Positions 8,074 to 55,100 of a stretch of DNA of 59,845 bases are shown one piece after another (position 1 is the first letter of the stretch; each line of letters begins with the position of its first letter). The stretch covers positions 1-59,845 of the IMG/VR virus record IMGVR_UViG_3300005533_000243; one strand, written 5' to 3'. Source of the DNA: a virus. The position numbers and the translations under genes are program-made. A model generated the notes under the pieces. That model did no database searches, was not told the DNA's origin, and saw only the letters and a program-made list of their open reading frames with translations.

Positions 8074-8091
8074 GTTACCTCCGTAGGTTAC
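8074..8091. repeat. GTWACC palindrome over ribosome-binding site
   Basis: GTTACC-TCCGTA-GGTTAC. On the minus strand it reads into GGAGGTAAC directly before the GTG of the 7653-8072 gene. Confidence 0.8.
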
Positions 8092-11380: not shown

Positions 11381-11743
11381 TTATGCGGCTACGGATGGTT
11401 TCGTTTCGCTCTCCGTAACCTGCGGGGTAATCATCCCGCGGATTTTTTCTTTGGTTTCTTCGTCGAGCCAGTAGCCGACGTTGCGCCGCGAGTGGATTTG
11501 GATCTCCCACTCTTTCAGGTGGCGGCGAAGGCGGTGAACGGCGACCTTGGCGTCAGTCGCGATCTCGAGCCGCTGCCGGATGATTTCAGGCGTGACGGTA
11601 TCGAGTGAGATGAGAAGGCCGAACAGATTGTTCTGGGCCGGGGAGAGACGAAACGTGTTAGCGATGGTCTGATTGTTCTGGTTGAGAGCGGCACGCAGGT
11701 CTCGCAGTTGCTGCCGCAGAACTTCGATTTCGTCGTCCGACAT
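11381..11743 (-). CDS. Winged-helix regulator, second copy
   Basis: This 120-residue protein begins with a coiled-coil segment (EIEVLRQQLRDLRAALNQ) followed by a winged-helix domain: LSPAQNNLFGLLIS, VTPEIIRQRLE, KVAVHRLRRHLKEW and a wing ending NVGYWLDEE. The order matches the regulator at 3163. The coiled coil could serve for dimerisation. A degenerate GTWACC palindrome lies in its 3' coding part, and a perfect CGCGACA/TGTCGCG dyad lies in its leader, so autoregulation is possible. Confidence 0.7.
   Translation of the reverse strand: MSDDEIEVLRQQLRDLRAALNQNNQTIANTFRLSPAQNNLFGLLISLDTVTPEIIRQRLEIATDAKVAVHRLRRHLKEWEIQIHSRRNVGYWLDEETKEKIRGMITPQVTESETKPSVAA
11415..11431. repeat. GTWACC palindrome, degenerate
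   Basis: GTAACC-TGCGG-GGTAAT, inside the coding region of the 11381 regulator. The second arm has one mismatch. Confidence 0.5.
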
Positions 11744-11872: not shown

Positions 11873-13783
11873 TCACTTTGCATCGCCGTATGTCGGGCCG
11901 CTTCCGACCTCCGCGGCGAGCGGAAGGTCCAACGCCCATTGCGGGCGCCGCACCATTTCCTCGTGAATAATTTTCTTCACCTCCGCGACGTGTTGCTTCG
12001 GCGTGATGAAGACGAGCTCGTCGTGCGCTTGCAGATTGAGCCACACGTTGTACTTGGCCACGCGCCGCTGAATTCGTACGGCAGCAGACATAGTCACGAT
12101 GCGGGCGATCGCTTGCACGATGTTCTCGAGCAGCGCTCCACCCCAAATAAATTTGGTCTTGGGTCCGTACTTGAAGCGCCACTGACCGCCTTCTTGCTGG
12201 AGGTCGCGATAGAAGAGACGTAACCCGCTGGGTAACAGGATCGAGCCCTTCTCGATCAGGCACGGACCGAATTCAGCACGGCCGCCGCCGGACAGGATGT
12301 TGAGATGCGCGCCGAGCGTTTTCCACGCACCCGAAATCCGGTAGTTTTTTCGACGATAAGTTTTGACGGTCTTGATCGACGTCTCGTCGTCCAACTCGAT
12401 CGCGGTACCGATTTGTTGCTTCGATAGGATTTTGACCGAGCGTTGAAACTTCTCCCAGCCGACGCCGAAGCCGAGGCTGAGAATTCCGGTCTTGCCGACG
12501 AAGCCCATGCCGACTTGTTGCGGATCAGGATCACCGTTCGGGAGTTTTGCCTTGCGGTTGACCGGCTGGTCGAACACTTCGGATGCAAAGTCCGAATAGA
12601 CGTCGGCTCCGCGCGCGAACGCGTCAACAAGATCAGTCTGGCCGCAGATCCACGCGGTAATGCGCGCCTCGATTTGTGAGGCATCGGCGACAACGGCTTC
12701 TTCGTCCGGGCCAACCGTGAGTGCGCGCCGGAGCGCCTTGACGCCGTCGCGCGCCGGCATGTTCTGCATATTGATTTTCCACTCGCCCGACAGGCGATGT
12801 GTATGCGCGCCGGAGAAGCGCAGCGGCACCGGCATCAGTCCGACTTGTCCCTTACCAGGCCAGTTCAAGGCGGCAATCTCGAGCAGGCGCTTGGTGCGCG
12901 TCTCCTCGAGCGTGCTCTTGTGACCCAATCGGGCGGCGATCAGCGCCTGCACCGCGGGGTTGTCGTCCTCCTCAAGTGCGAGGAAATCGGGATCGGTCTT
13001 TGAGAACGCCCACGTCGAAAGCCCGGTCGTCGGCGAAATCTTCTTCGGCGGTTCGCACCCGACGTTCCGCAGGAGCTCGGCGAAGCGATCGTTCGACATC
13101 AAATCGCTCTTGCCGTCGACGCCGCCCGCGAGCATTGCCTGGGCGAGAAGTTCGTTCTTCTGCTGGACGATGCTGTTGAGGTGAACAGCGAGTTTCGGCG
13201 CGTCGAGAATGAAGCGCGGTTTGATCGCGCAACGCAGGACCATATCCATGACCGGCAGCTCTTCGGCCGGGAATTCACCCGACTCGACAAGCTTCTCGAA
13301 GATCCCTTCGTTCAGATCGTTATCGTTGAGCGCGTACACCTCGTAATCCGGCCAGAGGCCGGCGGCCTTGATGGCCGCGCCGCACATGCCCTCGACTTTG
13401 AGGATCGTCTTGCCTTTCGCCGGCAGGCCCAGATGCTCCGCTACGGTTTCGAGGTTGAGGCGCTTGAGTTCGGAGCCGCGGCAAGCGCGCGCGACCCCCA
13501 TCGTGTCGACCATCAGCTTGGGCACGAAGTCATATTTCCACGCTGTGATGCACATATCGAACAGCGCGTTGAAAGTTACCATGCAGGTATCTTTCGGATC
13601 GAGCGACGCAAAGTAGGCGCGGAGCTCCGCGTCCTCGAGAAAGACACCGGGTTGACGCCGTTCTTTCACGGCGCAGCCGATCATTTCGAAGCGGGGATCG
13701 AGGATGTATTGCACCGGCGTCATGCGGCGCAGCGTGTATTCCTTGGAGTAGAACGTCTCGTAGTCGAGGAAAACGAATTTCAT
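11873..13783 (-). CDS. DNA polymerase, family A
   Basis: This protein of about 636 residues is a phage DNA polymerase I-type enzyme. The N-terminal 3'-5' exonuclease starts FVFLDYETFY (Exo I DxE). The polymerase domain has motif A VVADASQIEARI, motif B GKTGILSLGFGVG and motif C LQAHDELVF. It lacks a 5' nuclease domain, as in T7-like enzymes. The ATG at 13783 is preferred, though a GTG at 13798 is in frame and neither has a good Shine-Dalgarno. Its leader overlaps, in antisense, the candidate small RNA at 13840-13917. Confidence 0.93.
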   Translation of the reverse strand: MKFVFLDYETFYSKEYTLRRMTPVQYILDPRFEMIGCAVKERRQPGVFLEDAELRAYFASLDPKDTCMVTFNALFDMCITAWKYDFVPKLMVDTMGVARACRGSELKRLNLETVAEHLGLPAKGKTILKVEGMCGAAIKAAGLWPDYEVYALNDNDLNEGIFEKLVESGEFPAEELPVMDMVLRCAIKPRFILDAPKLAVHLNSIVQQKNELLAQAMLAGGVDGKSDLMSNDRFAELLRNVGCEPPKKISPTTGLSTWAFSKTDPDFLALEEDDNPAVQALIAARLGHKSTLEETRTKRLLEIAALNWPGKGQVGLMPVPLRFSGAHTHRLSGEWKINMQNMPARDGVKALRRALTVGPDEEAVVADASQIEARITAWICGQTDLVDAFARGADVYSDFASEVFDQPVNRKAKLPNGDPDPQQVGMGFVGKTGILSLGFGVGWEKFQRSVKILSKQQIGTAIELDDETSIKTVKTYRRKNYRISGAWKTLGAHLNILSGGGRAEFGPCLIEKGSILLPSGLRLFYRDLQQEGGQWRFKYGPKTKFIWGGALLENIVQAIARIVTMSAAVRIQRRVAKYNVWLNLQAHDELVFITPKQHVAEVKKIIHEEMVRRPQWALDLPLAAEVGSGPTYGDAK

Positions 13784-14625: not shown

Positions 14626-14675
14626 TCAGTTACCTCCGTGGTAATTTTCGGTGGCTTGCGTGGTTTCACCGCCAT
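14622..14675 (-). CDS. Putative 17-residue leader micro-ORF
   Basis: The frame reads MAVKPRKPPKITTEVTE. Its stop overlaps the next start by ATGA, and its last codons encode the palindrome at 14629. AAGG lies about nine bases upstream of its ATG. It could couple translation to the 13915 gene through the palindrome region. Expression is unproven. Confidence 0.3.
   Translation of the reverse strand: MAVKPRKPPKITTEVTE
14629..14645. repeat. GTWACC palindrome over ribosome-binding site
   Basis: GTTACC-TCCGT-GGTAAT. The minus strand gives GGAGGTAAC four bases from the ATG of the 13915 gene. Confidence 0.75.
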
Positions 14676-14832: not shown

Positions 14833-16083
14833 TCAGGCATCACTCCCGCTCGGCACGTCAACGACGTCGCCGAACGGATATTTCGAACTCGGATAGATGT
14901 TCCCCCAGATCACCGGGTAAGCCGGCGGCTTATCGGGGAACGAACCCATGCCGTCCGTGAGGAACACGAGCGCCTCCGGCTCTAGACCGCGCTCGGCAAT
15001 CTCGTCGAATACCGGACGAAAATCCGTGCCACCACCCCCCGGTGCGCCCTTGCAGCGCACAGAGTTGAGGTCGCTCGGATCATAGAGCTCGTCGACGCGG
15101 TGGACTTTCGCGTCACACCAGATCACCACGAGCTCGCGCGGCCGGACATCTTCCAAGATCCCGGCCATCTCGGCGAAGAACATATCCAATTCCTTCTCGC
15201 CGATAGATCCCGACGTATCGCAGCCGACGACGACAGTGCCGGCACCGAAGCCGGAGCGTCCGGGGGCAACGATACCCCGCACGATCAGGCGGCGATCGGG
15301 CTTCTGCCAGTTGTACGAGCCGCTACCGACCTTGCGCGCGAACAGCGCACGGATCTTCTCGCGCCAGTCGATCTGCGGATCGAGAAGCTCTCCGAAGAGC
15401 CGTTCGAGACCGGCGGGAAGCTTGCCCTGTGCACGAGCGGCATTGGCCGCCGCGGCAATCGCCGTCTTCCACGCGATCTCGTTTCGCTGCTGGGACGCCG
15501 TGTTGGGATCTTGGCCCCTGCCGGCGCCCGGCGACAGGTGGATGTCGAAGCCCTTGCCGCTCATCGGCGGCTTGTCCTTGATCAGCTTCCGATAAGCGTC
15601 GAGGCCGGTATCCTTCGCCGTCGCGATCTTCGGGTCGTGCAGCCAGTCCTTGTTGAACTGGCCGACCTTCGACTCGATCAGCGCGTCGTTGATCACCAAG
15701 TCGAGCGCCTGGTTCATCGTCTGCTGGTCGTAGGGAAACGACTTACCATCGGGGTAACTTACCTTTCCCCGCTGGGCGAATTGGTGCATCGTGATGCAGT
15801 GGTTGTAGATGCAGTGCATGATTTCGTGCGCCACGATGAACACGCGCTCGTTCAGGTTATATTTGAAGAACGTGTCGGGGTTGATGATGAGCGAAGAGCC
15901 ATCGGTGGCCGCGATCGGAACGTCCTTCGTGAACATCGCGATGTGCTTCGAGTTCACGGTGTCGAGCATCGTGTAAAAAATGTGCGAGAACGCGGGGCAG
16001 TGCCAGAGCAACGAAACGCGCGTGTCGCTCCAAGCTTTTTCCTGCGCCGGTGTGAGTGCGCACGGTTCAGGCTTCTTGTCCAT
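14833..16083 (-). CDS. VWA-like metallopeptidase (DUF2201 type)
   Basis: This 416-residue protein has an N-terminal zincin-like region with HEIMH near residue 84 and a C-terminal von Willebrand factor A-like domain with the MIDAS motif VVGCDTSGSIGE, followed by GGGTDFRPVF and FLTDGMGSFP. This combination is the VWA/metallopeptidase partner of MoxR-type AAA+ ATPases, and a MoxR gene lies 1.1 kb upstream in the same operon. Together they probably form a chaperone-like or maturation module. The role in the phage is unknown. The ATG at 16083 has GAGGAG at good spacing. Confidence 0.85.
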   Translation of the reverse strand: MDKKPEPCALTPAQEKAWSDTRVSLLWHCPAFSHIFYTMLDTVNSKHIAMFTKDVPIAATDGSSLIINPDTFFKYNLNERVFIVAHEIMHCIYNHCITMHQFAQRGKVSYPDGKSFPYDQQTMNQALDLVINDALIESKVGQFNKDWLHDPKIATAKDTGLDAYRKLIKDKPPMSGKGFDIHLSPGAGRGQDPNTASQQRNEIAWKTAIAAAANAARAQGKLPAGLERLFGELLDPQIDWREKIRALFARKVGSGSYNWQKPDRRLIVRGIVAPGRSGFGAGTVVVGCDTSGSIGEKELDMFFAEMAGILEDVRPRELVVIWCDAKVHRVDELYDPSDLNSVRCKGAPGGGGTDFRPVFDEIAERGLEPEALVFLTDGMGSFPDKPPAYPVIWGNIYPSSKYPFGDVVDVPSGSDA

Positions 16084-16605: not shown

Positions 16606-17144
16606 GGGTTACCTCCAGGGGTTACTCCGAGAATGATGCGAAAGACGGGATTGGTGCGGCACGCTTCGCGCCACGCGTGGAAGACTTTCGTGCCCTCTTC
16701 ATCGAAGAACACGAAGGTCCAATTGCCCTTGCGCTCGATGCGGGAAACGCCTTCTTCGGCTTGCTCCCCCCGCCGAACTACTTTGCTGACCAACAGAAGC
16801 GACGACACCAACTGCTGTGATCTCTTGCTGCGGCGTACGTCCATCGTGATCAAAGGAATTTCCCGCCAAGTTTGCGTGGCCTCATCCCACCGGCTGCGAG
16901 CCTCTTCCTCGGCGAACGGCCGAATGCGATCGGACTTCGAGGCGAGCTCTTTGAACTCATCGCGAAGCGATGATCCAATCTGGTGCAACAATCCGGCGGC
17001 CTCTTTGCTGATGTAGACGATCCCGTCTTTTTCGAAGCCATCGAAGGCCGCTTGAATTGCAGCGGCGCCGGCGTCGATAAGCCGTCCTGCTTCCTCGTGC
17101 TGCTTGCGCACCTCGAGGATCTTTTCCCTGATGTGTGGGTGCAC
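16602..17144 (-). CDS. Hypothetical protein
   Basis: This 180-residue helical protein starts with GTG (MHPHIREKILEVRKQ). GGAGG from the palindrome at 17150 lies nine bases upstream. Its C-terminal residues (LGVTPGGNP) are encoded by the palindrome at 16608, so that repeat is both coding and the leader of the next gene. It lies between MoxR and VWA genes. The family is not recognised. Confidence 0.6.
   Translation of the reverse strand: MHPHIREKILEVRKQHEEAGRLIDAGAAAIQAAFDGFEKDGIVYISKEAAGLLHQIGSSLRDEFKELASKSDRIRPFAEEEARSRWDEATQTWREIPLITMDVRRSKRSQQLVSSLLLVSKVVRRGEQAEEGVSRIERKGNWTFVFFDEEGTKVFHAWREACRTNPVFRIILGVTPGGNP
16608..16625. repeat. GTWACC palindrome over ribosome-binding site
   Basis: GTTACC-TCCAGG-GGTTAC, just before the ATG of the 16351 gene and within the last codons of the 16602 gene. 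Confidence 0.8.
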
Positions 17145-17149
17145 GGTGG

Positions 17150-17166
17150 GTTACCTCCAAGGTAAA
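17150..17166. repeat. GTWACC palindrome over ribosome-binding site
   Basis: GTTACC-TCCAA-GGTAAA, upstream of the GTG of the 16602 gene. The second arm has one mismatch. Confidence 0.7.
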
Positions 17167-18620: not shown

Positions 18621-18638
18621 GTTACCTCGTGGGGTTAC
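18621..18638. repeat. GTWACC palindrome at start/stop junction
   Basis: GTTACC-TCGTGG-GGTTAC. It contains the TAA of the upstream kinase gene and the GAGG for the 18281 gene. Confidence 0.8.
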
Positions 18639-19211: not shown

Positions 19212-19229
19212 GTAACCCCGCAGGGTTAC
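19212..19229. repeat. GTWACC palindrome, perfect
   Basis: GTAACC-CCGCAG-GGTTAC lies in the 84-base gap upstream of the dNMP kinase start. It is the clearest purely intergenic copy. Confidence 0.8.
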
Positions 19230-19398: not shown

Positions 19399-19806
19399 TC
19401 AGCAGTAGGGTTTCTGGATAAGCCGACGGCGCGCGCCATCCGGCTCGATCTGGTGATACTTGCCGCCGGAATAGTGCGCGCAATCGAGCGCGAACCCGCG
19501 GCGGATGATCTCTGCGTTGATCTCGATACCGTGCGAGGTAACGCAGGTGCCGACCACGCGATTGTACGACCAACCAGACCACTTGCAGGTCACGCGGTCG
19601 TTGCCGATGATTTCGATGAGCGCGTCTCGCGCCGCCGGCCCGTTCGGCTCGTCCAGCTCCTCGGCGTCAACGCCCTGGAGGCGGACGCTTTGGCCTTGCA
19701 CGCGGATGGTGTCGCCATCGTGGACGCGTGCGTATCCCGATAGCGTGCCGGATTGCGCGATCGTGAGTGCGCACAACCCCAGCCACTTGCATATGATCGG
19801 CGTCAT
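19399..19806 (-). CDS. Exported thermonuclease-like (SNase) protein
   Basis: This 135-residue protein has a signal-like N-terminus (MTPIICKWLGLCALTIAQS) followed by a staphylococcal-nuclease fold: ARVHDGDTIRVQGQSVRLQGVDAEELDEP, AARDALIEIIG and a C-terminal INAEIIRRGFAL. The paired Arg and Glu of the first block match the SNase active site. It probably cuts nucleic acid in the periplasm, which could help superinfection exclusion or nucleotide scavenging. Its start overlaps the upstream stop by four bases. Confidence 0.82.
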   Translation of the reverse strand: MTPIICKWLGLCALTIAQSGTLSGYARVHDGDTIRVQGQSVRLQGVDAEELDEPNGPAARDALIEIIGNDRVTCKWSGWSYNRVVGTCVTSHGIEINAEIIRRGFALDCAHYSGGKYHQIEPDGARRRLIQKPYC

Positions 19807-20108: not shown

Positions 20109-20452
20109 TTCGTAACCTCGTCAGGTAACTTCGGCACGCGGCCCATCCAGGGCTCAGGCTTGATCGCCCGCATCCAGTCGACGAACGACGGGATATGTCC
20201 GAAGTCCTCTTGAACGTGCTGCTCGCCAACCCACCGAGTCGGTACTTCGCGGCCGGTGCTGATCTTCACGATCGGTCCAAAGAGCTGCACGCAGAGCATG
20301 ATGCCCTCGGCGTGATGGCGCAGCGCGCGATGTCGAAAGTCGCAACTGATCGCCTTCGATCCGTCGAACCATTGGTGGATGTGCAGGTAATCTTCCGGCG
20401 TTCCACCCCACTTCTTCGCGCTCGACCTCGCGTGGTGATAGGGGTCAGCCAT
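20105..20452 (-). CDS. DUF6915-like protein
   Basis: This 115-residue protein begins MADPYHHARSSAKKWGG and contains HQWFDGSKA, CDFRHRALRHHAEG and WVGEQHVQEDFGHIPS. This pattern matches a family of small phage and bacterial proteins that I recall as DUF6915. The many conserved His residues suggest metal binding. Function unknown. Its last codons (DEVTK) are encoded by the palindrome at 20112. Confidence 0.65.
   Translation of the reverse strand: MADPYHHARSSAKKWGGTPEDYLHIHQWFDGSKAISCDFRHRALRHHAEGIMLCVQLFGPIVKISTGREVPTRWVGEQHVQEDFGHIPSFVDWMRAIKPEPWMGRVPKLPDEVTK
20112..20129. repeat. GTWACC palindrome over ribosome-binding site
   Basis: GTAACC-TCGTCA-GGTAAC lies three bases upstream of the ATG of the 19803 gene and inside the end of the 20105 gene. 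Confidence 0.75.
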
Positions 20453-20871
20453 TTTTCTTCCGCTGCCGGCTGCGGACCTTGTTGCCCGTCGAGTAATCCC
20501 AATGGGAATGCTTGGAGTCGGTGAACCGCTCGTTCATTTCGAGCAGCACCTGGCCGGTGTCCGCGACGACTTCGACCCGGCCAAAGCCACCATCGTTGTT
20601 GTACCAGTCGATCCCCGGCCGGTTGATGATCGCGTAAACGAATTCCTCGATCGCTTCCCGCAGCGGCATTCGGGCTCGGCTGCCGTCGGAAATCAGGCGT
20701 TCGAAAAATAACCCGTCAAGGTTACCTTCCGTCAGACCCTCGACCAGGAAGTCGCTGATCTGGCCGCTATCGCCGGCGCCATCGAAGTCGACGACCAGCT
20801 TGGTGATGCCATGCTTCTTCATGACGTCGATAAGCAGCTCATCGTTGTCGAAAGTATTTTTCGTTGGCCAT
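20445..20871 (-). CDS. DUF6878-like protein with apparent frameshift at start
   Basis: The main frame encodes ITKLVVDFDGAGDSGQISDF, typical of a family I recall as DUF6878, and runs to KVRSRQRKKNG. No good start lies in this frame. The ATG at 20871 has GGAG eight bases upstream but is one base out of frame and stops after 10 codons. If the run of five A (minus strand, 20857-20861) were six, the protein would read MANEKNTFDNDELLID and continue in frame. It is either a sequencing or assembly error, a true mutation, or programmed slippage. About 142 residues when corrected. Confidence 0.6.
20709..20726. repeat. GTWACC palindrome, degenerate
   Basis: ATAACC-CGTCAA-GGTTAC, inside the DUF6878-like gene. 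The first arm has one mismatch. Confidence 0.5.
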
Positions 20872-21250: not shown

Positions 21251-21268
21251 GTAACCTTGCGGGGTTAC
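21251..21268. repeat. GTWACC palindrome, perfect, at a stop codon
   Basis: GTAACC-TTGCGG-GGTTAC. It contains the TAA of the 21265 gene. Confidence 0.8.
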
Positions 21269-21875: not shown

Positions 21876-21965
21876 TCACCACCAGACCATCGAATGACCC
21901 AATAGCCAGGCGACGTAACCCAGCGAGGTTACCGCGGCGGCGTAGGCAGCGAGTGGAGTGAGCAT
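21876..21965 (-). CDS. 29-residue membrane micro-protein (putative)
   Basis: The frame reads MLTPLAAYAAAVTSLGYVAW and continues hydrophobic to a stop two bases before the next gene start. It would be a single membrane helix. The codons for VTSLGY are the palindrome at 21915. The Shine-Dalgarno is weak, so expression is uncertain. Confidence 0.4.
   Translation of the reverse strand: MLTPLAAYAAAVTSLGYVAWLLGHSMVWW
21915..21932. repeat. GTWACC palindrome, perfect
   Basis: GTAACC-CAGCGA-GGTTAC, about 40 bases upstream of the 21581 gene start. The centre CAGCGA is the same as at 6258. Confidence 0.8.
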
Positions 21966-22748: not shown

Positions 22749-22986
22749 TGTTACCTCGCTGGTTACCTGTGAGTTCGATCAGGATGCACTGGGCCTGAAG
22801 TGGGTCGAGCCGCCGCCAGGTCTCTGTGACTTTGTTGTTTTTGTATCGGTAGACAAGATCGTAGAACGGTGTCGAGTTGGCTCGCATCCAAATAGAGATG
22901 TAGCCGTCGTCCGTGACCACGTGCGCGTATTTCCATAGCGAGCCATCGTCCACCGGCTCTTCCCACGGTATCTCGTCGAGCGTCAT
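22726..22986 (-). CDS. Small paralogous family protein, member c
   Basis: This 86-residue protein starts MTLDEIPWEE and has WRRLDPLQAQCILIELTG near the C-terminus. The N-terminal M-x-LDE-(I/L)-P and the C-terminal D-x3-AQ-x2-L are shared with members d and e. The middle (YISIWMRANSTPFYDLVYRY) is beta-rich. The ATG at 22986 overlaps the stop of member d by four bases. Function unknown. Confidence 0.7.
   Translation of the reverse strand: MTLDEIPWEEPVDDGSLWKYAHVVTDDGYISIWMRANSTPFYDLVYRYKNNKVTETWRRLDPLQAQCILIELTGNQRGNNDPHSAA
22750..22766. repeat. GTWACC palindrome over ribosome-binding site
   Basis: GTTACC-TCGCT-GGTTAC, with GAGGTAAC one base before the ATG of the 22431 gene. Confidence 0.8.
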
Positions 22987-23463: not shown

Positions 23464-23698
23464 CGTTACCTCCGCAGGTAATGTGGTTGAGGATGCACTG
23501 GGCGGACGCAGCGTCGATGTTCTTGTGCTTGAAGAACATGTCGCCTTGCCCGTCCCAGTCACGCGAGCAGGTGTGTGAGATCGTGAACAGGTTGTTTTCC
23601 TCACGCCGCACAAAGTAAAAAATCCCGTCGCGGCCGAGCAGCATCTTCGTTGTGCCGCCGTCACCGTTGGTGAGGAACGGCAATTCATCGAGGCGCAT
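23456..23698 (-). CDS. Small paralogous family protein, member e
   Basis: This 80-residue protein starts MRLDELPFLTNGDGG and has NIDAASAQCILNHITCGG at the C-terminus. It shares both the N-terminal and C-terminal signatures of the family, and a middle with IFYFVRREENNLFTISHT. The start follows GAGGTAACC from the palindrome at 23700. Confidence 0.7.
   Translation of the reverse strand: MRLDELPFLTNGDGGTTKMLLGRDGIFYFVRREENNLFTISHTCSRDWDGQGDMFFKHKNIDAASAQCILNHITCGGNDG
23465..23482. repeat. GTWACC palindrome over ribosome-binding site
   Basis: GTTACC-TCCGCA-GGTAAT. It encodes the last residues of member e and carries the GGAGG for the 23197 gene. Confidence 0.75.
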
Positions 23699-23699
23699 G

Positions 23700-23717
23700 G
23701 TTACCTCGCGTGGTTAC
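23700..23717. repeat. GTWACC palindrome over ribosome-binding site
   Basis: GTTACC-TCGCGT-GGTTAC, one base from the ATG of member e. A GCGCACTCAC motif copy lies just upstream. Confidence 0.8.
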
Positions 23718-23923: not shown

Positions 23924-24179
23924 GGGTTGTCTCCATCGTGGTGTGGGTAGGCGTGAAGAAATTTCCTAACGAATGAATTTGAATATGTGTGAAGATGATG
24001 GGGTGGCGGCGCTGCTCACTCGCACGCTGGCGGGAACTGCCGCCACCCCACGCTCGCGGCTCTGGCCAACCGTTCAAGGGTCAGCCTGCTGCGAGCTACC
24101 GGCGCACTGCTCCCAACTCTTGGGTTCAGGGCATCACGCCCCTAGCTGCGCCGGGATACTTAGGCGTTACCTGTGGGGG
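23924..24179. other. Non-coding gap with long stem
   Basis: No credible gene is seen. GGGGTGGCGGC (24000-24010) and GCCGCCACCCC (24039-24049) form a perfect 11-bp stem. A smaller CCCAA/TTGGG stem lies near 24114. It is downstream of the 24180 gene on the minus strand, so it could end or attenuate that transcript, although no clear T-run follows. Confidence 0.55.
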
Positions 24180-24183
24180 TTAC
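24166..24183. repeat. GTWACC palindrome at a stop codon
   Basis: GTTACC-TGTGGG-GGTTAC. It contains the TAA of the 24180 gene. Confidence 0.75.
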
Positions 24184-24920
24184 GCCGCCTCGGCCTGCTG
24201 CTCGCCGGGCTGCTCGGTCGCGGGAGTATTCTCCACCACCGTCAGTCCCAGCGAAGCCGCCTTGGCCAGAACCTCGTCGCGCTCCTTCACGCTCATGAGG
24301 GCAGCGAGACGCTGCTTCACGAGCGAGTGAGCCTGCACGAGTTCGTCCGACTGATCCTGCACGCCGGCTTCGCCAGTCACGATCTTCTCGATCGAGTTGA
24401 CGATGCGCGTGAGTTCGGTTTCCAAGGTCTTGTCCTTGGAGACCTTCTCGCAGGCGGCGCGGATCTGGTCGTCGGTCAGGTCGGTGTCGCACGCAAGCTG
24501 CGCCCGCGCGACGGCGACGAGCGCCGGATACGGGGACACAACTTTCACTTCGCTCTTCACCATCTCCTGATAGAGACGGGAAGCGCGCGTGAACACTTCG
24601 ACCGGATCGCAGGTCGTCATGCCGCCGACCGCGATAAGCTGGCGAAGCTTGGAGACATTCGCCTTCTTGCCCGTGGCGGTGTGATCGTGAACGGCCTTCT
24701 TGCTCTCGGCCGTCAGATAGGCGTCGTAGACGCGATGCGCGTCGTCCTTGCCTTCGCTGTCCTTGTCCAGCGTAACGATGCCATCGTTCGCCGCGCGCAC
24801 GATCTTGTGCGCGAGCGACGGAAGGCTGTCCTTGCCGGACGCGGCGTCACGACCCAGCTCGCGGACCTCGCTCATGAGGTCGTCGAGCCGCTTGTCGTTC
24901 TTCTGCGCTTTGGTGACCAT
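24180..24920 (-). CDS. Hypothetical helical protein
   Basis: This 246-residue, mostly helical protein (MVTKAQKNDKRLDDLM) ends in a Glu/Gln/Ala-rich tail. It has no membrane segment, signal or recognisable motif. The leader has AACCCACGGAG before the ATG. It is a single gene between two non-coding regions, the first after the origin-like block, so it could be expressed early and strongly. That is inference. Confidence 0.65.
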   Translation of the reverse strand: MVTKAQKNDKRLDDLMSEVRELGRDAASGKDSLPSLAHKIVRAANDGIVTLDKDSEGKDDAHRVYDAYLTAESKKAVHDHTATGKKANVSKLRQLIAVGGMTTCDPVEVFTRASRLYQEMVKSEVKVVSPYPALVAVARAQLACDTDLTDDQIRAACEKVSKDKTLETELTRIVNSIEKIVTGEAGVQDQSDELVQAHSLVKQRLAALMSVKERDEVLAKAASLGLTVVENTPATEQPGEQQAEAA

Positions 24921-25055: not shown

Positions 25056-25072
25056 GTAACTTCACAGGTTAC
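25056..25072. repeat. GTWACC palindrome, degenerate
   Basis: GTAACT-TCACA-GGTTAC. It also reads as GGGTAAC/GTTACCC with a 7-base centre. Confidence 0.55.
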
Positions 25073-25941: not shown

Positions 25942-25958
25942 GTAACCTCGTGGGTAAC
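25942..25958. repeat. GTWACC palindrome over ribosome-binding site
   Basis: GTAACC-TCGTG-GGTAAC, three bases upstream of the ATG of the 25663 gene. Confidence 0.8.
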
Positions 25959-26519: not shown

Positions 26520-26537
26520 GGTACCCGGCGGGGTAAC
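26520..26537. repeat. GTWACC palindrome, degenerate
   Basis: GGTACC-CGGCGG-GGTAAC, one mismatch in the first arm, about 75 bases upstream of the promoter at 26611. Confidence 0.45.
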
Positions 26538-30795: not shown

Positions 30796-31094
30796 ACATC
30801 ACCACAATCACCTGGATCCTGCGACTCGCGTCGCCGTTCATCGGTGGGTCGATCTTCGGCCTGCCGGTGGCGGCGATCGTGTCGTTCCTCACGGCGAACT
30901 CCACCGAGATCACGATGGCGGCGACCGTCATTCAGAACGTGGCGAAGAAACTCGCCGCGGCGAAAGGGATCTCGATCCAGTCGGCGCTCGCCGAGGCGGC
31001 GCAGATGGTCGCCAAGGTGCACCCGATGGTGCCTGGAAGCATCGAGGAGAAGATCTGGATGGAGCGGCAGTCTCTGCCGGTGAACGGCGGATGA
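30792..31094 (+). CDS. Membrane protein, holin partner candidate
   Basis: This 100-residue protein starts with GTG overlapping the holin stop (GTGA). It has one strong membrane segment (PFIGGSIFGLPVAAIVSFL) followed by a helical cytoplasmic or periplasmic part. It may be a second holin or antiholin. Its stop overlaps the next ATG. Confidence 0.6.
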   Translation: MNITTITWILRLASPFIGGSIFGLPVAAIVSFLTANSTEITMAATVIQNVAKKLAAAKGISIQSALAEAAQMVAKVHPMVPGSIEEKIWMERQSLPVNGG

Positions 31095-31369
31095 ACGTTA
31101 CCCAGGAGGTAACCCGCTCGGTCCTAGGCATCATTGCCGAGGAGGAACTCGCCGCGGCCATTCGTGTGACCGTGCAAACGCTGGCGACGTGGCGTAGCGA
31201 GGGCAGAGGCCCCAAATACGCAAAGCTTGGACGTTCAGTTTTTTACAGGGTGTCAGATCTCCATGAGTGGATCGCCGACTGTATGGAGGGAGTGGAAGAC
31301 CAGTCCGGAGATCGGACGCATGAAGTTCCAGGATCACATTCGAAGCCAGCCGCCCGCGCGGCGGGTTGA
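31091..31369 (+). CDS. Excisionase-like HTH protein
   Basis: This 92-residue protein contains a MerR/HTH_17 type domain: LAAAIRVTVQTLATWRSEG, then GPKYAKLGRSVFYRVSDLHEWI, which is the typical recognition helix and wing of excisionase-like proteins. It may be the recombination directionality factor for the integrase at 180, or a regulator. Codons 3-8 (VTQEV) are encoded by a perfect GTTACC-N5-GGTAAC palindrome, which could allow self-binding. It overlaps the holin-partner stop by ATGA. Confidence 0.75.
   Translation: MNVTQEVTRSVLGIIAEEELAAAIRVTVQTLATWRSEGRGPKYAKLGRSVFYRVSDLHEWIADCMEGVEDQSGDRTHEVPGSHSKPAARAAG
31097..31113. repeat. GTWACC palindrome in the HTH gene start
   Basis: GTTACC-CAGGA-GGTAAC, perfect, covering codons 3-8 of the HTH gene. 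The 18-base GTTACCCAGGAGGTAACC recurs exactly at 53473. Confidence 0.85.
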
Positions 31370-37476: not shown

Positions 37477-38547
37477 ATGCCCAAGCTTGCCGCTAAGGAC
37501 GACCCGAACGTAAAACTTCCGGCCGCCGCCCGTAGAGCTTCCCAAAACGCAGATCGCCTGCACGCGGAAGCGTACAAACCCCAAGACCCCAATCCAGATC
37601 CTGCCACTGCCGCGCCCGCCCCCGCAGCGGGCGAGCAGACCACCGAGGTTACCTCCAAGGTAACCGGTCAGCCGGAAAACGATCCTCCGGCGAATCCTCC
37701 AGCCGCGCCCGCGGCTGCCAACCCCAAGACGGCTTCCGCCGCCGGCGAAGACGACGACTTCAAACACAAATACCAGTCCCTGAAGGGGCGCTTCGATCAG
37801 CAAGCGAAAGCGTTGCGGGAGGCTGGCGATACCATCAGCACTCTGCGCGTGCAGCTCGCCGAGGCGGCGACTGCGCCACCAACGCGTATGCCTGCCGAGC
37901 AGTCGTTCAAAAAGCTCCTCACGCCCGATCAAGAGAAAGAGTTCGGCGAGGAATTTTTGGACGTCGTTGGCAAGAAGGCGCAGGAAGTTGTCGTGCCGGA
38001 GTTGTCGGTTATTCGCCGGGAACTCAGCGAGCTCGCCAATCGAGTTTCCAATACCGGCCAGCGGATCACGCAGGAGGCGCGCCGCCAGCTCGAGTCCACG
38101 CTAACGGAACACGTGCCAGACTGGCGCCAAATCAATGTTGATCCGAATTTTTTGGATTGGCTTGCGTTGCCCGATACTTACTCGGGTGATATCCGTCTCT
38201 CGTTGTTGAAATCGGCCTACGAGGCAAACGACGCCAGTCGTGTGGTCGCTTTCTTCAAAGGCTTCCTCGCTGAAGAGGCTGCCCTGGTCCCCGCACCAGC
38301 ATTGCCGGACAATCCGCCGGCGGATCCATCCGCCCAGCCGAAAGTCCCGCTTAATTCACTCGCGGCGCCAGGCAGAGCTAAGACAGCGGCATCCAATCCC
38401 CCCGCTGAGAAGCCCGTATTCACCCGTGCCCAGATCGCTCAGTTTTACGCTGACGTGACCGCGAACAAGTATCGCGGCCGCGAAAAAGAGAAGGACTCCC
38501 TGGAAAGGGAAATCTTCGCAGCGCAACGAGATGGGCGCATCCGATAA
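37477..38547 (+). CDS. Scaffolding protein
   Basis: This 356-residue protein has a Pro/Ala-rich N-terminal third, a coiled-coil centre (FDQQAKALREAGDTISTLRVQL) and a charged C-terminal helix (REKEKDSLEREIFAAQRDG). It immediately precedes the coat gene, where scaffolds are usually encoded. It should drive prohead assembly and leave before packaging. A perfect palindrome (37648) encodes its VTSKVT. Confidence 0.8.
   Translation: MPKLAAKDDPNVKLPAAARRASQNADRLHAEAYKPQDPNPDPATAAPAPAAGEQTTEVTSKVTGQPENDPPANPPAAPAAANPKTASAAGEDDDFKHKYQSLKGRFDQQAKALREAGDTISTLRVQLAEAATAPPTRMPAEQSFKKLLTPDQEKEFGEEFLDVVGKKAQEVVVPELSVIRRELSELANRVSNTGQRITQEARRQLESTLTEHVPDWRQINVDPNFLDWLALPDTYSGDIRLSLLKSAYEANDASRVVAFFKGFLAEEAALVPAPALPDNPPADPSAQPKVPLNSLAAPGRAKTAASNPPAEKPVFTRAQIAQFYADVTANKYRGREKEKDSLEREIFAAQRDGRIR
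37648..37664. repeat. GTWACC palindrome, perfect
   Basis: GTTACC-TCCAA-GGTAAC, in the scaffold coding region. Confidence 0.8.
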
Positions 38548-40903: not shown

Positions 40904-43235
40904 CGCCATTACCATTGACGCCCAAGCCGACGGCATCGTCATTGACCTACAGCTCGTGGGAATGAATGACGCTGCCGCAGCGGCCTCGTCCGCCGCTGCC
41001 GCAGCGGCGTCCGCGGCGTCTGCTGCATCCCACGATACGAGTTCTGCTGCTCACGATTCGAGCGCGGCCGCTCACGACAGCTCGGCGGCCTCTTCCGCCA
41101 CGGCCGCGGCCGCGTCCGCCGCATCCGCCGCATCCCACGACTCGAGCGCCGCATCCCACGACTCGAGCGCCGCATCTCACGACACCGCTGCCGCTGCGTC
41201 GGCTACCGCCGCCGCTGCCTCAGCCTCGAGCGCAGCTACGCACGATACGAATGCCGCCGCGAGCGACTCGAACGCAAATACCGTCTACACGAATTTCGAT
41301 AAACGGTTTCTCGGCGCGAAAGCTTCCAACCCGACGCTCGACAACCAGGGCGCCGCGCTCCAGACGGGCGCGCTCTATTTCAACACTACGTCGGGTGACA
41401 TGCGCGTGTGGAACGGCTCCGCCTGGCAAGTTTCGTACAACCCCTCCGCCGGCGCCGTCGACAGCTTTAACGGTCGAACCGGCGCGGTCACTCCACAATC
41501 TGGCGACTACTCGTCTGGCCAAATCACCGGCCTCGGAAACGCGGCAACGAAGAACGTCGGCACGACCGCCGGTACCGTCGCGGCCGGCGACGACTCGCGC
41601 ATCGCCGGTGCCGCGCAAACGGCGAACAACCTTTCGGATCTTGCATCGTATCTGACGGCGCTGACGAACATACACGCCGAAGGTGGTACAGGGCACGGCG
41701 ACTCAAACTACACTATCCTGCCGACCGACAAATTTGTCTACACGAACGCTAACTTTACGGCGAACCGCACGTGGACGCTCCCCGCGGCGAACGCGGTCAA
41801 TCCAGGCCGCTTTCTGCTCGTTGCCGACGCCAAGGGAATGCTTACGAGCTCCCACACGCTTATTGTACAACGAGCGGGCTCCGATACGGTCAACGGCGGC
41901 ACGTCGATTACGATTCGAGATCCGCTCGCTTTCATAATCTTGGTTTCGGATGGTGTGTCGAACTGGTTCGCGTTCATGTTTCAGGGCGCCGCGCAATTCC
42001 GCCAGTCCGACGTTCTTCAGAGCGCGCTTAATCTTTCCGATCTCGCGAGCGCATCGACGGCGCGTACGAACCTCGGCCTCGGCGACGCCGCCGTCAAGAA
42101 TACAGGTACGACCGCCGGCACGCTCGCCGCCGGCGATGACTCGCGTATTACTGGCGCCGCTCAAAAGGCGAACAATCTTTCCGATCTCGCAAGCGCGGCA
42201 ACGGCGCGTACGAACCTTAAGGTTGATGGGCGGACGGCGATCGGTGACGCGAACAATACGTTCTCGTCGACCGATGGTCCGACCTATGCGACGAGCGCGA
42301 CTTTAACCGCTGCGCGCACCTGGACGCTACCGGCCGCGAACACGCTCAATGCCGGCGAGCGGCGCTTCATTGTCGATGAAGCTGGCGGAGTATCGGCCTC
42401 GAATACGCTTACTGTCCAACGTGCCGGCTCCGACACAATCGAAGGTGGCACGTCGCTCGTACTCGCGACGAAATATGCAGCCGTAATTCTGGAGAGCGAC
42501 GGCACATCGAAATGGACGAAAATCGCGGTCGCGACCTTCGATCAGGTGTCGCACCGTCTCGGCGACGAAACGTCGATCGCCTCGGCCGCCACGACCGACA
42601 TTGGCGCATCGCCGACGACGCGCGTGCAAGTGACCGGCACGACGACGATCACGAGCCTGGGAACGGTCGCGAACAAGCTTCGCATCGTGCGCTTTGCGGG
42701 TGTGCTCACGCTCACGTACAACGCCTCGACGCTCATCTTGCCGGGCGGCGGCAACATCGCGACGAAGGCGGACGACGTTGCGTTTTTCGTTTCGGACGCG
42801 AGCGGAAATTGGCGCTGCATCTATTATGCGAAGGCGGAGTTCCCGTATCGCGCGGCGCCGACGGCGGACTTTCTAGCGAACGTTGCGGCGGAATATCTGA
42901 TTACGGATCAGATTTGGAACGCCGCTGGCATCGTAAACCTCACCGACGCGGCGACGATCGCCGTTGATATGTCGACGTTCATCAATGCGAGCGTCACCCT
43001 CGGCGGTAACCGCACGCTCGGCAATCCGTCGAATACGAAGGGCGGTCAAAGCGGCGCCATCCAGATTATCCAGGACGGCACCGGCTCGCGCACGCTCGCC
43101 TATTCGTCGAATTGGAAATTCAACAGCGCCGCCGCTCCGACCCTCTCGACGACTGCGGGCGCCCGCGATGTGCTTTTCTATTTGGTCGTTTCGTCGACGC
43201 ATATCCAAGCGTGGCTGCAAAAGGATATGCGATAA
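40896..43235 (+). CDS. Tail fibre protein
   Basis: This 779-residue protein has a short N-terminal head, a Ala/Ser/His/Asp-rich stretch of imperfect 7-residue repeats (SHDSSAA type, residues 24-125), and a shaft with two copies of a module around TTAGTVAAGDDSRI and TTAGTLAAGDDSRI, each followed by ANNLSDLAS. The repeats suggest a trimeric, coiled-coil-like shaft. The C-terminal region (ADFLANVAAEYLITDQIW and beyond) is probably receptor-binding. DNA repeats of 21 bases underlie the heptads. Confidence 0.85.
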   Translation: MTDAITIDAQADGIVIDLQLVGMNDAAAAASSAAAAAASAASAASHDTSSAAHDSSAAAHDSSAASSATAAAASAASAASHDSSAASHDSSAASHDTAAAASATAAAASASSAATHDTNAAASDSNANTVYTNFDKRFLGAKASNPTLDNQGAALQTGALYFNTTSGDMRVWNGSAWQVSYNPSAGAVDSFNGRTGAVTPQSGDYSSGQITGLGNAATKNVGTTAGTVAAGDDSRIAGAAQTANNLSDLASYLTALTNIHAEGGTGHGDSNYTILPTDKFVYTNANFTANRTWTLPAANAVNPGRFLLVADAKGMLTSSHTLIVQRAGSDTVNGGTSITIRDPLAFIILVSDGVSNWFAFMFQGAAQFRQSDVLQSALNLSDLASASTARTNLGLGDAAVKNTGTTAGTLAAGDDSRITGAAQKANNLSDLASAATARTNLKVDGRTAIGDANNTFSSTDGPTYATSATLTAARTWTLPAANTLNAGERRFIVDEAGGVSASNTLTVQRAGSDTIEGGTSLVLATKYAAVILESDGTSKWTKIAVATFDQVSHRLGDETSIASAATTDIGASPTTRVQVTGTTTITSLGTVANKLRIVRFAGVLTLTYNASTLILPGGGNIATKADDVAFFVSDASGNWRCIYYAKAEFPYRAAPTADFLANVAAEYLITDQIWNAAGIVNLTDAATIAVDMSTFINASVTLGGNRTLGNPSNTKGGQSGAIQIIQDGTGSRTLAYSSNWKFNSAAAPTLSTTAGARDVLFYLVVSSTHIQAWLQKDMR
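41020..41200 (+). repeat. 21-bp tandem repeats in the fibre gene
   Basis: Repeats based on GCATCCCACGACTCGAGCGC and shorter variants encode SHDSSAA-like heptads. The copy number could change by slippage and alter the fibre length. Confidence 0.75.
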
Positions 43236-48872: not shown

Positions 48873-50139
48873 CTATACGCCGATCGCTCAAGCCTCCGAA
48901 GCGTCTGCTGACAAAGCGTACCAACTGGGCGAAGACCAGCTCGCCTGGGCCAAGCAGCAATATGCCGAGAACAAGGACGTTACCGATCAGGTCGTCGGTT
49001 CATTCCTACAAACTCAGGATCTCAACGACCAATCGGCGCAGGCAGACCGAGCGCGATACCAGACCGAGTTTCAGCCGCTCGAAGACCAGCTCGTTCAGGA
49101 TGCGCAAAGCTATGCGACGCCGCAGCGCAAGGATCTCGAACGCGGGCGAGCGCAAGCGGCCGTCTCGCAGAGCTTCGATACGCAGCGACAGAATTCGCAG
49201 CGCGATCTAGAAGCCTTCGGCATCAACCCCGGTGCGACGCGCTTCGGCGCCCTCGACATCGCAACGCGAGCCCAGCAAGCCGCGGCCACGGCCGCTGCTG
49301 GCAATCAGTCGGATCAGATGGTCGATGCTACCGGCCGCGCCATCCGCTCGGAAGCGATCAACGTCGGCCGCGGATATCCAGGCCAGATCGCCGGCCAGTA
49401 CGGCACCGCGCTCACCGGAGGCACGTCGGCCGTCAATGCCGGTCTCGCTACAACCGCCAGCGGCGCCCAGACCATGGGCACGTCGCCGCAATACATGGCG
49501 CTAGGAAACAATGCGCTCGGCGTTTGGGGTAACACGCTCAACATGGGCTACCAAAACCAGCTCTCTGCGTTCAACGCGCAGCAGCAGGCTTCTTCCGGCT
49601 TCGGTTCGGCGCTCGGCCTCGCCGCCGGCCTCATGTTCGCGAAGGAAGGCGGTGCGGTTCCCGACCCGAAGCGGCCGTTCAGCGATCACCACTTCTACGT
49701 CATCCCGCGCGTCAACAAGCAGGGCAAGCAGCTCTCGCACGAAGAAGCGATGACCCATTTCTTCCATACCGGCGAGCATCACGGTGTGTTCAATTCGCCG
49801 GAAGAGGCGCAACAGCATTTCGCCGGCGGCGGTGTTCCACTCGACCAGACCCAAGGCGGCGGCGTCCCCGCCGGCGCTTCGCCGTCCGGAGGCCAGGCGA
49901 TTGACGACGTTGCCGCCCGCCTCACTGCCGGCGAGTTCGTCGTGCCGAAAGACGTCGCCCGGTGGAAGGGTGAAGAGTTCTTCCAGAAACTGATTTCGCA
50001 GTCGCGCAACGCCAAACAGAAGGCGGTGGCGAGACCGACATTCGGTCCGGCAATCCCGATGGGCGGAGCTCCACAACCGCGTCCGGGAGCGGCTCCCGCT
50101 CCCCAGCAAGCGCCGCGCGCGGCGTTACCCGTGAGGTAA
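48841..50139 (+). CDS. Internal virion protein
   Basis: This 432-residue protein has a Pro-rich start (MGKSSPPPPPDYTPI), a long Gln/Ala-rich helical part (residues 25-230), a short GLAAGLMFAKEGG segment, a conserved-looking HHFYVIPRVNKQGKQ region and a Pro/Ala tail. The pattern and position fit the smallest of three podovirus ejection proteins. Its stop lies inside a perfect GTWACC palindrome. Confidence 0.75.
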   Translation: MGKSSPPPPPDYTPIAQASEASADKAYQLGEDQLAWAKQQYAENKDVTDQVVGSFLQTQDLNDQSAQADRARYQTEFQPLEDQLVQDAQSYATPQRKDLERGRAQAAVSQSFDTQRQNSQRDLEAFGINPGATRFGALDIATRAQQAAATAAAGNQSDQMVDATGRAIRSEAINVGRGYPGQIAGQYGTALTGGTSAVNAGLATTASGAQTMGTSPQYMALGNNALGVWGNTLNMGYQNQLSAFNAQQQASSGFGSALGLAAGLMFAKEGGAVPDPKRPFSDHHFYVIPRVNKQGKQLSHEEAMTHFFHTGEHHGVFNSPEEAQQHFAGGGVPLDQTQGGGVPAGASPSGGQAIDDVAARLTAGEFVVPKDVARWKGEEFFQKLISQSRNAKQKAVARPTFGPAIPMGGAPQPRPGAAPAPQQAPRAALPVR

Positions 50140-50140
50140 C
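50124..50140. repeat. GTWACC palindrome at stop and ribosome-binding site
   Basis: GTTACC-CGTGA-GGTAAC. It contains the TAA of the 48841 gene and the GAGG for the ATG at 50143. This is the plus-strand equivalent of the left-arm leaders. Confidence 0.85.
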
Positions 50141-52122: not shown

Positions 52123-55100
52123 ATGGCCGAGGGTGATCCTTGGTGGAGCGGTCTATACAACGACAGTTCCGAAGCGCCTGCCCCAGACAATAGCAGCCCG
52201 ACGTGGGGAGATTACGGTAAAGCCTTAAAGTCCGGAGCCGAGGAGCTCGGAGCGTCGATTGGCGCCGGTATTCAGGAATACGCCAGCGACGAAACGCCAG
52301 AGGGCCGCCTCGTAAAGGAGATGGGCGGCGTTATCCGCCGCAATCTCGGTGACCAGGCAGAAGACACTTCGCAGTCCATGACGCCGGTGGCGCGCCAGCG
52401 CCTGGAGGCGTCGATCACCAGCCCCGAATTCTGGAACCATCCGCTCAGCTCGACGGCGCTCAAAGCGACAAAAATGTCGCCGGCTGCCGCCGCGATGATC
52501 GTTCCCGGCGGCCTGATCGCCGACGCCACTGCCGCGACGATCGCCACCGCCGGCGTTGGTGGCGCCCTGAACGTCGCGCAGCTTGTCGACAATGTCTACA
52601 AGATGGTCGACCAGCTTCCGGACGATCAGCTCCGCGCCAAGAGCGATTATTACAACACCCTCCGCGACTCGAACGTCAGCGAAGAGGACGCGCGACAGCA
52701 ACTCAAGAGCCGTCTCGTCACCGACGCCAAGCCGGCGCTCAACTTCGCTGTTGGCTCAGTCGCCGCAGCCCTTGGACCCTCTGCCGCCATCGTGCGCGGC
52801 GCCAAGGGCGCTACCGCCGTAATCGGCGCCGGCGAACGCGGAGCCCTGGGCCGGGCTGCCATCGGCGCGGGAGAAGCTGGTGCCGGCATGGGCACCCAAA
52901 CCGGAGTCGAGGAAGCGAGCCGCCAACAGGCCGCAATCCAAGAGGGCCTCCAGCAGAATTTCGATACCGACAAACTCGTCGAAGCGGTGCTCGAGCCCAC
53001 GTATCTGGGCGCCATCACGGGTGGCGCTGCCGGCGCCGTGATCAAGGGCAAAGGGGTAAAGACCGAACCCAAGCCGAAGGTTGAGACTGAAACCGAGACC
53101 ACGAGCCCCGCCGCCGAGGATCGCGGCGTTACCGACGAGAAGGTCGGAACGTCACAGGTGCAGAAGGGGACCGGCACAGGAAATCAGCCGCCGCCCCCCG
53201 ACGCCAAGCGCCCTGACGTTCGTTATCCGAAGCCCAGCGCCAGCGACGAAGAGAAGATCCGCTCGGCGACACTCGAGGACGTGCTCGCGCGCACGCGCCA
53301 GAACAAGGGCGCCGAGGTCGTGGATGTCGTGGGTCCGACGTCGGAGCAGGAGCTCGCGCTCGGTAAGACCGAACGTCTCGCGAACCAAGACGTAAATCCC
53401 GACGTAAACCCAGACCTTGTTGAGCGCCGCGACGACGTGCAGCCTCCCGCCGGTCCTCCGGAGCAGCCGGACGTTACCCAGGAGGTAACCGCCGCGCCCC
53501 GCCCCGCCGCGCCGCCCGCTCCCGAAGTCAGGCCCGAAGACGTCGCACCGCCCAAGGATGTGGAGACGCCGCAGGCTCCCCGCGTCCTGCCGGCCCTGGA
53601 TCAGGACACCGCGCAGAATGTGCGCGCGACCAACCAGAGGATCGCCGCCAATGTCAAAGAGGCGCAACCGAAAGAGCCCAAAGGCAAGAACCGGTCGAAG
53701 ACTGATCAGGAGGCGCGCGCCAAGTCAGCCGCGGCGGCCGAGGCGCTATTCGTCCGGAGCGTGCCCGACGAGCACGTCATGCCCACGACGCCAGCGCAGC
53801 GTGGCGAGCTGCGCGATCGCCTGAAGGCGATCTCCGACGAGGCCGATAAGCTCGGGATCCAGGTGCCGACAAAGGTCGGATACGCCAATACGCCCGACCA
53901 CATCGTGTGGCTGCGCGAGGTCAAGAATCTCGCCAAGCGCATGGACCAGAAGAGCTTCGTCGGGAAGCGCGCCGCCGAGCATATCGGTACGTTCCTCGCC
54001 CGCGAGAAGGCTGCAAAAGCTGGCGACTTCAGCGTGATGCGTAATGAGCGCAAGGCTGAGGGCGACCTCGCCATGCGCCGCGACCAGGGCGAAGTGGAGA
54101 ATGCAGCGCCCTCGGCCGGCCTCGTCGCCGAGTCGCCTGAAGACGCGATCATCCGGCGCGAAGAGGAAGAGGGTCGGGTTGCGCCCGAAGCGCCCCGTCC
54201 GGCCCCGAAGCCTCGCGCCCCCGAGACCCCCGAGAAAGCGTCGGCGCGCACCAAGATCGAGGAGATCAAGAAGAAAGCTCGCGCCCAGGCCGAGGCGAAA
54301 GAGGCGGAAGAGAAAGACCGCCCGTGGCGCCGGATCCAGCTCACTGAGGAGCAGAAGAAGGCCGCCATCGAGTCGCTCGAGAAGAACATGAAGCGCCCCC
54401 CGCGTCCCGAGCCGATTGCGGACGCGATGCGCGAGGTAGAGACGAACCCGACACCTGCGCAGAAGGAGGCCGGCAACTACGCTAAGGGCCACATCAACGT
54501 GCAGGGTCTCAAGATCTCGATCGAGAACCCGCGCGGCTCTGTGCGCCGCGGCGGCGCGCCCGGGAAAGAATGGGAGACGAAAGTCCCCGATCACTACGGT
54601 TATGTGAAGCGCACCGAGGGAGCGGACGGCGATCAGGTTGATGTGTATGTCGGCCGCCACCCGGACAGCGATCGCGTTTACGTTGTGGATCAGATGGATC
54701 ACCGAACCGGCCGCTTTGACGAGCACAAGGCAATGCTCGGCTATCGGACGCAAGAAGAAGCCGAGAGCGCCTACAAGCGTGGATTCTCCGACGGTAAAGG
54801 CGCCGCGCGCATGGGCGCCGTGACGGAGATGTCCGTCGGCGACTTCAAGAACTGGCTTCGGGAAGGCGACACGAAAAACCCTGTCTCCGAGTCGGCGCCG
54901 CGCGCTTCAACCGCGGAAGACGTCGGACGATTGCTCGACGAGGAAGCCGAGCGGAAGCAGCCTCCCCAGCCGATCCGTACGACTACCACCGGTGAAATCC
55001 TAAAAAATCTGGACCTGAAGCATCTGGCTGACGTGCCGGGTGCGATCCAGCCGTTTATCGCTCGCCGCCTGCGAAATCTGGTGGGGGACAACGAAGTCCA

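What the first reader, a model, noticed from the sequence alone, without database searches (positions are those of the whole stretch)
31091..31369. Excisionase-like HTH gene with the palindrome in its own first codons
Seen: a perfect GTTACC-N5-GGTAAC covers codons 3-8 of a MerR/HTH_17-type protein. The exact 18-base sequence recurs at 53473. Known: such proteins act as directionality factors or repressors. Inference: it could recognise the family and regulate itself.
Basis: partly seen in the sequence, partly recalled or inferred. Interest (0 to 1): 0.65.

Follow-up and report, generated by a model that had tools for sequence, protein, structure and literature searches.

The report
Dispersed palindrome array in rhizobial-type phages
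The palindrome in this excisionase-like gene is one of about 30 copies scattered over the phage genome, and related phages carry up to about 100; it is most likely the binding site of a phage regulator that is not yet known, and probably not of the excisionase-like protein itself.

Summary
In detail: ATG-AAC-GTTACC-CAGGA-GGTAAC-C opens an HTH_17 gene (31091-31369), and the 18-mer recurs exactly at 53473. The inference is mostly wrong.

The palindrome belongs to an array of GTWACC-N5/N6-GGTWAC sites: 29 in the window, almost only with spacers 5 and 6, against about 0.1 expected. The array is shared by phages related through the terminase, including isolated Rhizobium phage RHph_TM3_14A (55 sites) and G028 (about 83-100). 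It is essentially absent from 60 Bradyrhizobium genomes. The two arms vary independently (317 sites), so it is a two-half-site DNA element, not an RNA hairpin. Sites are enriched immediately upstream of start codons. In some relatives the whole array has shifted (GTTACT, GTAACT), as expected for a phage-encoded binder.

The HTH_17 protein is best read as an RdfS-like excisionase: it matches RdfS by sequence and fold, occurs in all 8 integrase-positive phages, and is adjacent to int in three. It is missing from the most site-dense phages, and no relative keeps the site in its first codons.

Best explanation (about 50%): a stoperator-like operator array. Its binder is unidentified; the best candidate is the novel-fold protein at 24180-24920, then a PhoB-like protein at 11381-11743. 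No binding was tested.

The parts
31091..31369 (+). HTH_17 gene, 92 aa; RdfS/Xis-like protein (the finding's gene)
   Evidence: Pfam HTH_17 2.2e-8; PHROG 66 excisionase 2e-7; PDB profile hit RdfS 1.4e-4; AlphaFold pLDDT 79, core above 90; top fold hit RdfS
31097..31113 (.). array site N5 GTTACCCAGGAGGTAAC, codons 3-8 of the HTH_17 gene
53473..53489 (.). array site N5, identical 17-mer (18 with the following C), inside the 2260-aa gene
37648..37664 (.). array site N5 GTTACCTCCAAGGTAAC, inside gene 37477-38547
50124..50140 (.). array site N5, ends 2 nt before ATG 50143 (655-aa gene); same placement in several relatives
57007..57024 (.). array site N6 GTTACCCAGGCAGGTAAC
42993..43010 (.). array site N6, one mismatch
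6258..6275 (.). array site N6 GTTACCCAGCGAGGTAAC
8074..8091 (.). array site N6, 1 nt before GTG 8072 (-)
11415..11431 (.). array site N5, inside the PhoB-like gene
12220..12236 (.). array site N5 GTAACCCGCTGGGTAAC, inside the DNA polymerase gene
13575..13591 (.). array site N5, inside the DNA polymerase gene
14629..14645 (.). array site N5, 3 nt before ATG 14625 (-)
15742..15758 (.). array site N5
16608..16625 (.). array site N6, 2 nt before ATG 16605 (-)
17150..17166 (.). array site N5, 5 nt before GTG 17144 (-)
18621..18638 (.). array site N6, 1 nt before ATG 18619 (-)
19212..19229 (.). array site N6 GTAACCCCGCAGGGTTAC
19525..19542 (.). array site N6, one mismatch
20112..20129 (.). array site N6, 3 nt before ATG 20108 (-)
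20708..20725 (.). array site N6, one mismatch
21251..21268 (.). array site N6 GTAACCTTGCGGGGTTAC
21915..21932 (.). array site N6 GTAACCCAGCGAGGTTAC
22750..22766 (.). array site N5, 1 nt before ATG 22748 (-)
23465..23482 (.). array site N6, 1 nt before ATG 23463 (-)
23700..23717 (.). array site N6, 1 nt before ATG 23698 (-)
24166..24183 (.). array site N6, at the 3' end of the 24180-24920 gene
25056..25072 (.). array site N5, 136 nt upstream of the 24180-24920 gene
25942..25958 (.). array site N5, 3 nt before ATG 25938 (-)
26520..26537 (.). array site N6/N5, one mismatch
24180..24920 (-). 246-aa all-helical protein from ATG (257 aa from the upstream GTG), early region; leading candidate for the array-binding protein
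   Evidence: family in every related record that spans the locus; model pLDDT 88; no PDB fold match; site within 160 nt upstream of its start in 11 of 20
11381..11743 (-). 120-aa PhoB/OmpR-like winged-helix protein without receiver domain; second candidate binder
   Evidence: Pfam Trans_reg_C 7e-4, below the cut-off; PDB profile hit PhoB family 5.5e-4; in every record that holds the pol-exonuclease interval
180..1277 (-). tyrosine integrase, likely partner of the HTH_17 protein
   Evidence: Pfam Phage_integrase 3.1e-15

Best explanation
The palindrome in the HTH gene is one member of a phage-wide operator array. A phage-encoded protein, acting as a dimer on two GTWACC half-sites 5 or 6 bp apart, binds dozens of places per genome, many of them over the ribosome-binding site and start region of genes, and so blocks or tunes transcription from many points, in the manner of mycobacteriophage stoperators. 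The HTH_17 protein is a separate RdfS-like directionality factor whose gene happens to hold one site. SHOWN by sequence: the array, its two spacings, its conservation over the phage group, its absence from host genomes, independence of the two arms, enrichment before start codons, and coordinated drift of the whole array. INFERRED: dimer binding, repression, phage-encoded binder. GUESSED: the binder is the 24180-24920 protein (about 40%) or the PhoB-like protein at 11381-11743 (about 20%).
For: Only spacers 5 and 6 are enriched: 14 and 16 sites in the window against 2 for the ten other spacers together; over 74 terminase relatives 89 and 148 sites against 3-17 per other spacer. De novo search finds GTTACC-N6/N5 as the top palindrome in the window and the leading one in most dense relatives. 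Isolated phage RHph_TM3_14A has 55 sites. Host genomes: 0-2 exact sites per 8 Mb in 60 Bradyrhizobium genomes, no more than the reversed control; in Bradyrhizobium sp. 139 all 7 sites lie in two contig stretches that hold phage genes. Arms vary independently: 90 sites with unequal position-3 letters against 90.9 expected, Fisher p=0.84. Start codons: 10 of 55 sites in RHph_TM3_14A end 1-12 nt before one, against 0.94 expected; ATG excess at 0-6 nt across records. Intragenic sites avoid only the frame with an in-frame TAA, so the signal is in DNA, not peptide. Arrays drift as a set: GTTACT in G020 and L039, GTWACT in L011.
Against: No binding, expression or footprint data. Phages without a detected integrase (RHph_TM3_14A, G028, G027, G004, G009) carry the array too, so it is not simply a lysogeny device. 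Stoperators are asymmetric and oriented, these sites are not. Near-even spacing in dense genomes would also fit an architectural role. The binder is not identified: protein-motif distance correlations do not separate the candidates well (24180-24920 family r=0.63, helicase 0.59, PhoB-like 0.33), and motif variants largely follow the terminase tree. The 24180-24920 protein is acidic overall (pI 5.4) and has no recognised DNA-binding fold.
Confidence: 0.5

Rival explanations
1. The HTH_17 protein itself binds the palindrome family and regulates itself.
For: It is a DNA-binding fold and carries a perfect site in its first codons.
Against: Absent from RHph_TM3_14A and G028, which have among the densest arrays; none of 13 relatives keeps the site in its first codons; related RDFs bind direct repeats or no clear consensus (PMC7498355, PMC11963761). 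It correlates with integrase, not with the array.
Confidence: 0.07
2. Architectural or segregation-type array: a phage protein coats or organises the phage genome (nucleoid-like, ParB-like or packaging-related), with no direct control of transcription.
For: About one site per kb and more even than random in G028, RHph_TM3_14A, G039, G036 and G033 (CV 0.47-0.71, p<0.01); present with and without integrase.
Against: In the window, G017 and G011 sites concentrate in the early region, and sites are placed at start codons, which an architectural role does not need.
Confidence: 0.2
3. RNA-level control: the palindrome forms a hairpin in mRNA that hides the Shine-Dalgarno sequence (AGG in the right arm).
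For: Enrichment directly before start codons with AGG in the right arm.
Against: Position 3 of the two arms does not covary: mismatched stems are as common as chance predicts (90 against 90.9). Many sites are deep inside genes.
Confidence: 0.05
4. The sites are bound by a host protein that the phage exploits.
For: The group appears linked to Rhizobium and Bradyrhizobium hosts, so one host regulator could be shared.
Against: Host genomes hold no more exact sites than the reversed control, and relatives change the whole array sequence together, which fits a phage-encoded partner better.
Confidence: 0.1

Closest known systems
Stoperators of Cluster A mycobacteriophages (L5, TipsytheTRex)
   Same: Many copies of one short site over the whole phage genome, often in short intergenic spaces; site sequence differs between relatives (PMC9283540, PMC6550527).
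   Different: Stoperators are 13-bp, asymmetric, oriented with transcription and bound by a monomer, with up to about 30 per genome. Here the site is palindromic with two spacings, reaches about 50-100 per genome, and also occurs in phages without a detected integrase. The binder is unknown.
SPBRE elements and MrpR repressor of Bacillus phage SPbeta
   Same: A repeated phage element found in silico before its binder was known, then shown to be the site of the master repressor (PMC10516654).
   Different: 15-bp motif at the promoters of about ten genes, bound by a tyrosine-recombinase-fold protein; here sites are far more numerous and often intragenic.
RdfS recombination directionality factor (Mesorhizobium ICE)
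   Same: Sequence profile and predicted fold of the HTH_17 protein; association with a tyrosine integrase.
   Different: In the window the HTH_17 gene lies about 30 kb from int; RdfS has no apparent consensus site (PMC11963761). Concerns the gene, not the array.

Membership tests
Recombination directionality factor (RdfS/Xis type), for the HTH_17 protein | winged HTH fold of the Xis/RdfS kind | tested here: met
   Pfam HTH_17 over cut-off; RdfS top hit by profile and by fold. Lambda terminase gpNu1 and BldC share the fold and rank lower.
Recombination directionality factor (RdfS/Xis type), for the HTH_17 protein | genetic link to a tyrosine integrase | tested here: met
   8 of 8 integrase-positive records have it, 4 of 11 others; directly downstream of int in G020, G036 and G039, far from it in the window, G003, G008, G011 and G017. 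Records are related, so not independent.
Recombination directionality factor (RdfS/Xis type), for the HTH_17 protein | binds attP and stimulates excision | not testable with these tools
   needs protein and recombination assay
Stoperator system | many sites of one motif across the phage genome, outside the host background | tested here: met
Stoperator system | asymmetric site oriented with transcription | tested here: not met
   sites are palindromic
Stoperator system | cognate repressor that blocks elongation at the sites | not testable with these tools
   no expression or binding data; binder not identified
RNA hairpin / translational operator | compensatory changes in the two arms | tested here: not met
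   317 sites, position 3 independent, Fisher p=0.84

The most novel reading that the evidence does not exclude
A phage-encoded protein of a fold not seen in the PDB (the 24180-24920 family) binds about one site per kilobase across the whole phage genome, many sites doubling as ribosome-binding sites, and works in phages with and without integrase: a genome-wide control or packaging array unlike stoperators in symmetry, number and binder.
Probability: 0.25. Interest if true: 0.8.

Novelty: new variant of a known kind. Interest (0 to 1): 0.6.

Why it matters
Few phage groups are known with genome-wide operator arrays, and the known ones are asymmetric or small. Here an array of up to about 100 symmetric sites is conserved in a phage group that includes an isolated Rhizobium phage and a Bradyrhizobium prophage, so the binder and its effect can be tested directly. 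The coordinated change of site sequence between relatives would let immunity-type specificity be studied without mycobacteria.

Tried and rejected
HTH_17 as binder: rejected as unlikely. RNA hairpin: rejected on lack of covariation. Peptide signal (VTxxVT): rejected, frames are limited only by the in-frame TAA. Host motif: rejected. Identification of the binder by protein-motif distance and by trees: inconclusive. In one search the site models included a few sites with spacers 3, 4 and 7. Upstream-site counts take the first Met of the open frame as the start, so they are approximate, and the HTH_17 count there misses the window's own site. Fold of the 24180-24920 protein: no PDB match, only relatives in BFVD. 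Related-locus scan with the HTH_17 protein alone found nothing. Paper searches for the motif and for RHph_TM3_14A gave nothing relevant; the library covers open-licence papers only. G011 lacks the PhoB-like gene because its record has a deletion or misassembly between helicase and polymerase, so it was not counted against that candidate.

Full report
OBSERVATION. The ORF at 31091-31369 is real and begins ATG AAC GTT ACC CAG GAG GTA ACC; the palindrome covers codons 3-8 and its 18-mer recurs exactly at 53473. The protein matches Pfam HTH_17. The window is a whole IMG/VR virus record, a tailed phage with integrase, polymerase, terminase, portal and a 2260-aa gene.

THE FAMILY. The palindrome is not peculiar to this gene. 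Counting GTWACC-Nk-GGTWAC with at most one mismatch, the window has 14 sites with k=5 and 16 with k=6 (29 distinct), and 2 with any of the other ten spacers tested; in 15 simulated sequences spacers 5 and 6 gave about 0.1. An unbiased search over all 6-mer arms and spacers returns GTTACC-N6, GTTACC-N5 and GTAACC-N6 as the three top motifs of the window. Over 74 loci with terminase identity of 53% or more, spacers 5 and 6 give 89 and 148 sites against 3-17 for each other spacer; six loci with terminase identity 34-37% give none. RHph_TM3_14A, an isolated Rhizobium phage, has 55 sites and G028 about 83 (101 with a fitted model). Bradyrhizobium genomes hold 0-2 exact sites per 8 Mb, no more than the reversed control, and in Bradyrhizobium sp. 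139 all seven sites lie in two contig stretches that hold phage genes. So the sites belong to the phages.

NATURE OF THE SITE. Arms are GTWACC with a weak preference for C or T next; the centre is free. Across 317 distinct sites the T/A choice at position 3 of one arm is independent of the other (p=0.84; 90 unequal against 90.9 expected). A conserved RNA stem would need them equal. Intragenic sites use the two frames that avoid an in-frame TAA. The natural reading, an inference, is a dimeric DNA-binding protein that accepts both spacings; G009 and G027 use almost only N6, G017 mostly N5.

PLACEMENT. In RHph_TM3_14A 10 of 55 sites end 1-12 nt before an annotated start codon (0.94 expected) and 19 touch non-coding DNA (6.2 expected). 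Over all records ATG is in excess 0-6 nt after a site. In the window about eleven sites stand 1-5 nt before a start codon, nearly all in the leftward early region. In several dense genomes sites are more evenly spaced than random; in the window, G011 and G017 they concentrate in the early region.

VARIATION. G020 and L039 carry GTTACT in place of GTTACC, L011 GTWACT. Whole arrays change together, as expected if one trans-acting partner sets the sequence. The variants sit in one terminase clade, so descent explains the pattern as well.

THE HTH PROTEIN. Its profile and its model both match RdfS best. It occurs in all eight records with a detected integrase, adjacent to int in G020, G036 and G039, and is absent from RHph_TM3_14A and G028. 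No relative has the site in its first codons. I read it as a directionality factor and think it unlikely to bind the array.

THE BINDER. Not identified. Two families occur in every record that spans their locus: the all-helical 24180-24920 protein and the PhoB-like protein at 11381-11743. The first most often has a site upstream of its start (11 of 20) and the highest motif-distance correlation (0.63), but helicase and others come close and it has no known DNA-binding fold. These are hints only.

COMPARISON. Closest known are the stoperators of Cluster A mycobacteriophages and SPBRE/MrpR of SPbeta (PMC9283540, PMC6550527, PMC10516654). The array works like them in spread, but fails the asymmetry criterion, so I do not call it a stoperator system. 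I rate it a new variant of a known kind.

Noticed in passing
L083 18202-18309: A 35-aa ORF (MKWLNWSTRRVGGLRFIKIGRINISFSISREFRPL) just before the 24180-24920 homologue is conserved in six other records.
   Followed up: no
L083 21650-24767 and nearby: RHph_TM3_14A holds about ten small paralogous early genes sharing an AMLLG motif, several with an array site before the start.
   Followed up: no
G002 record (L105-L107): A more distant relative without the array has 10 copies of CTACCG-N12-CGGTAG against 0.23 expected; it may have an array of its own.
   Followed up: no
G024 contigs C111 and C166 (L247-L250): Bradyrhizobium sp. 139 carries what looks like one prophage of this group split over two contigs.
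   Followed up: partly
G011 record (L085): Helicase and polymerase are truncated and fused over a missing stretch, a deletion or assembly error.
   Followed up: no
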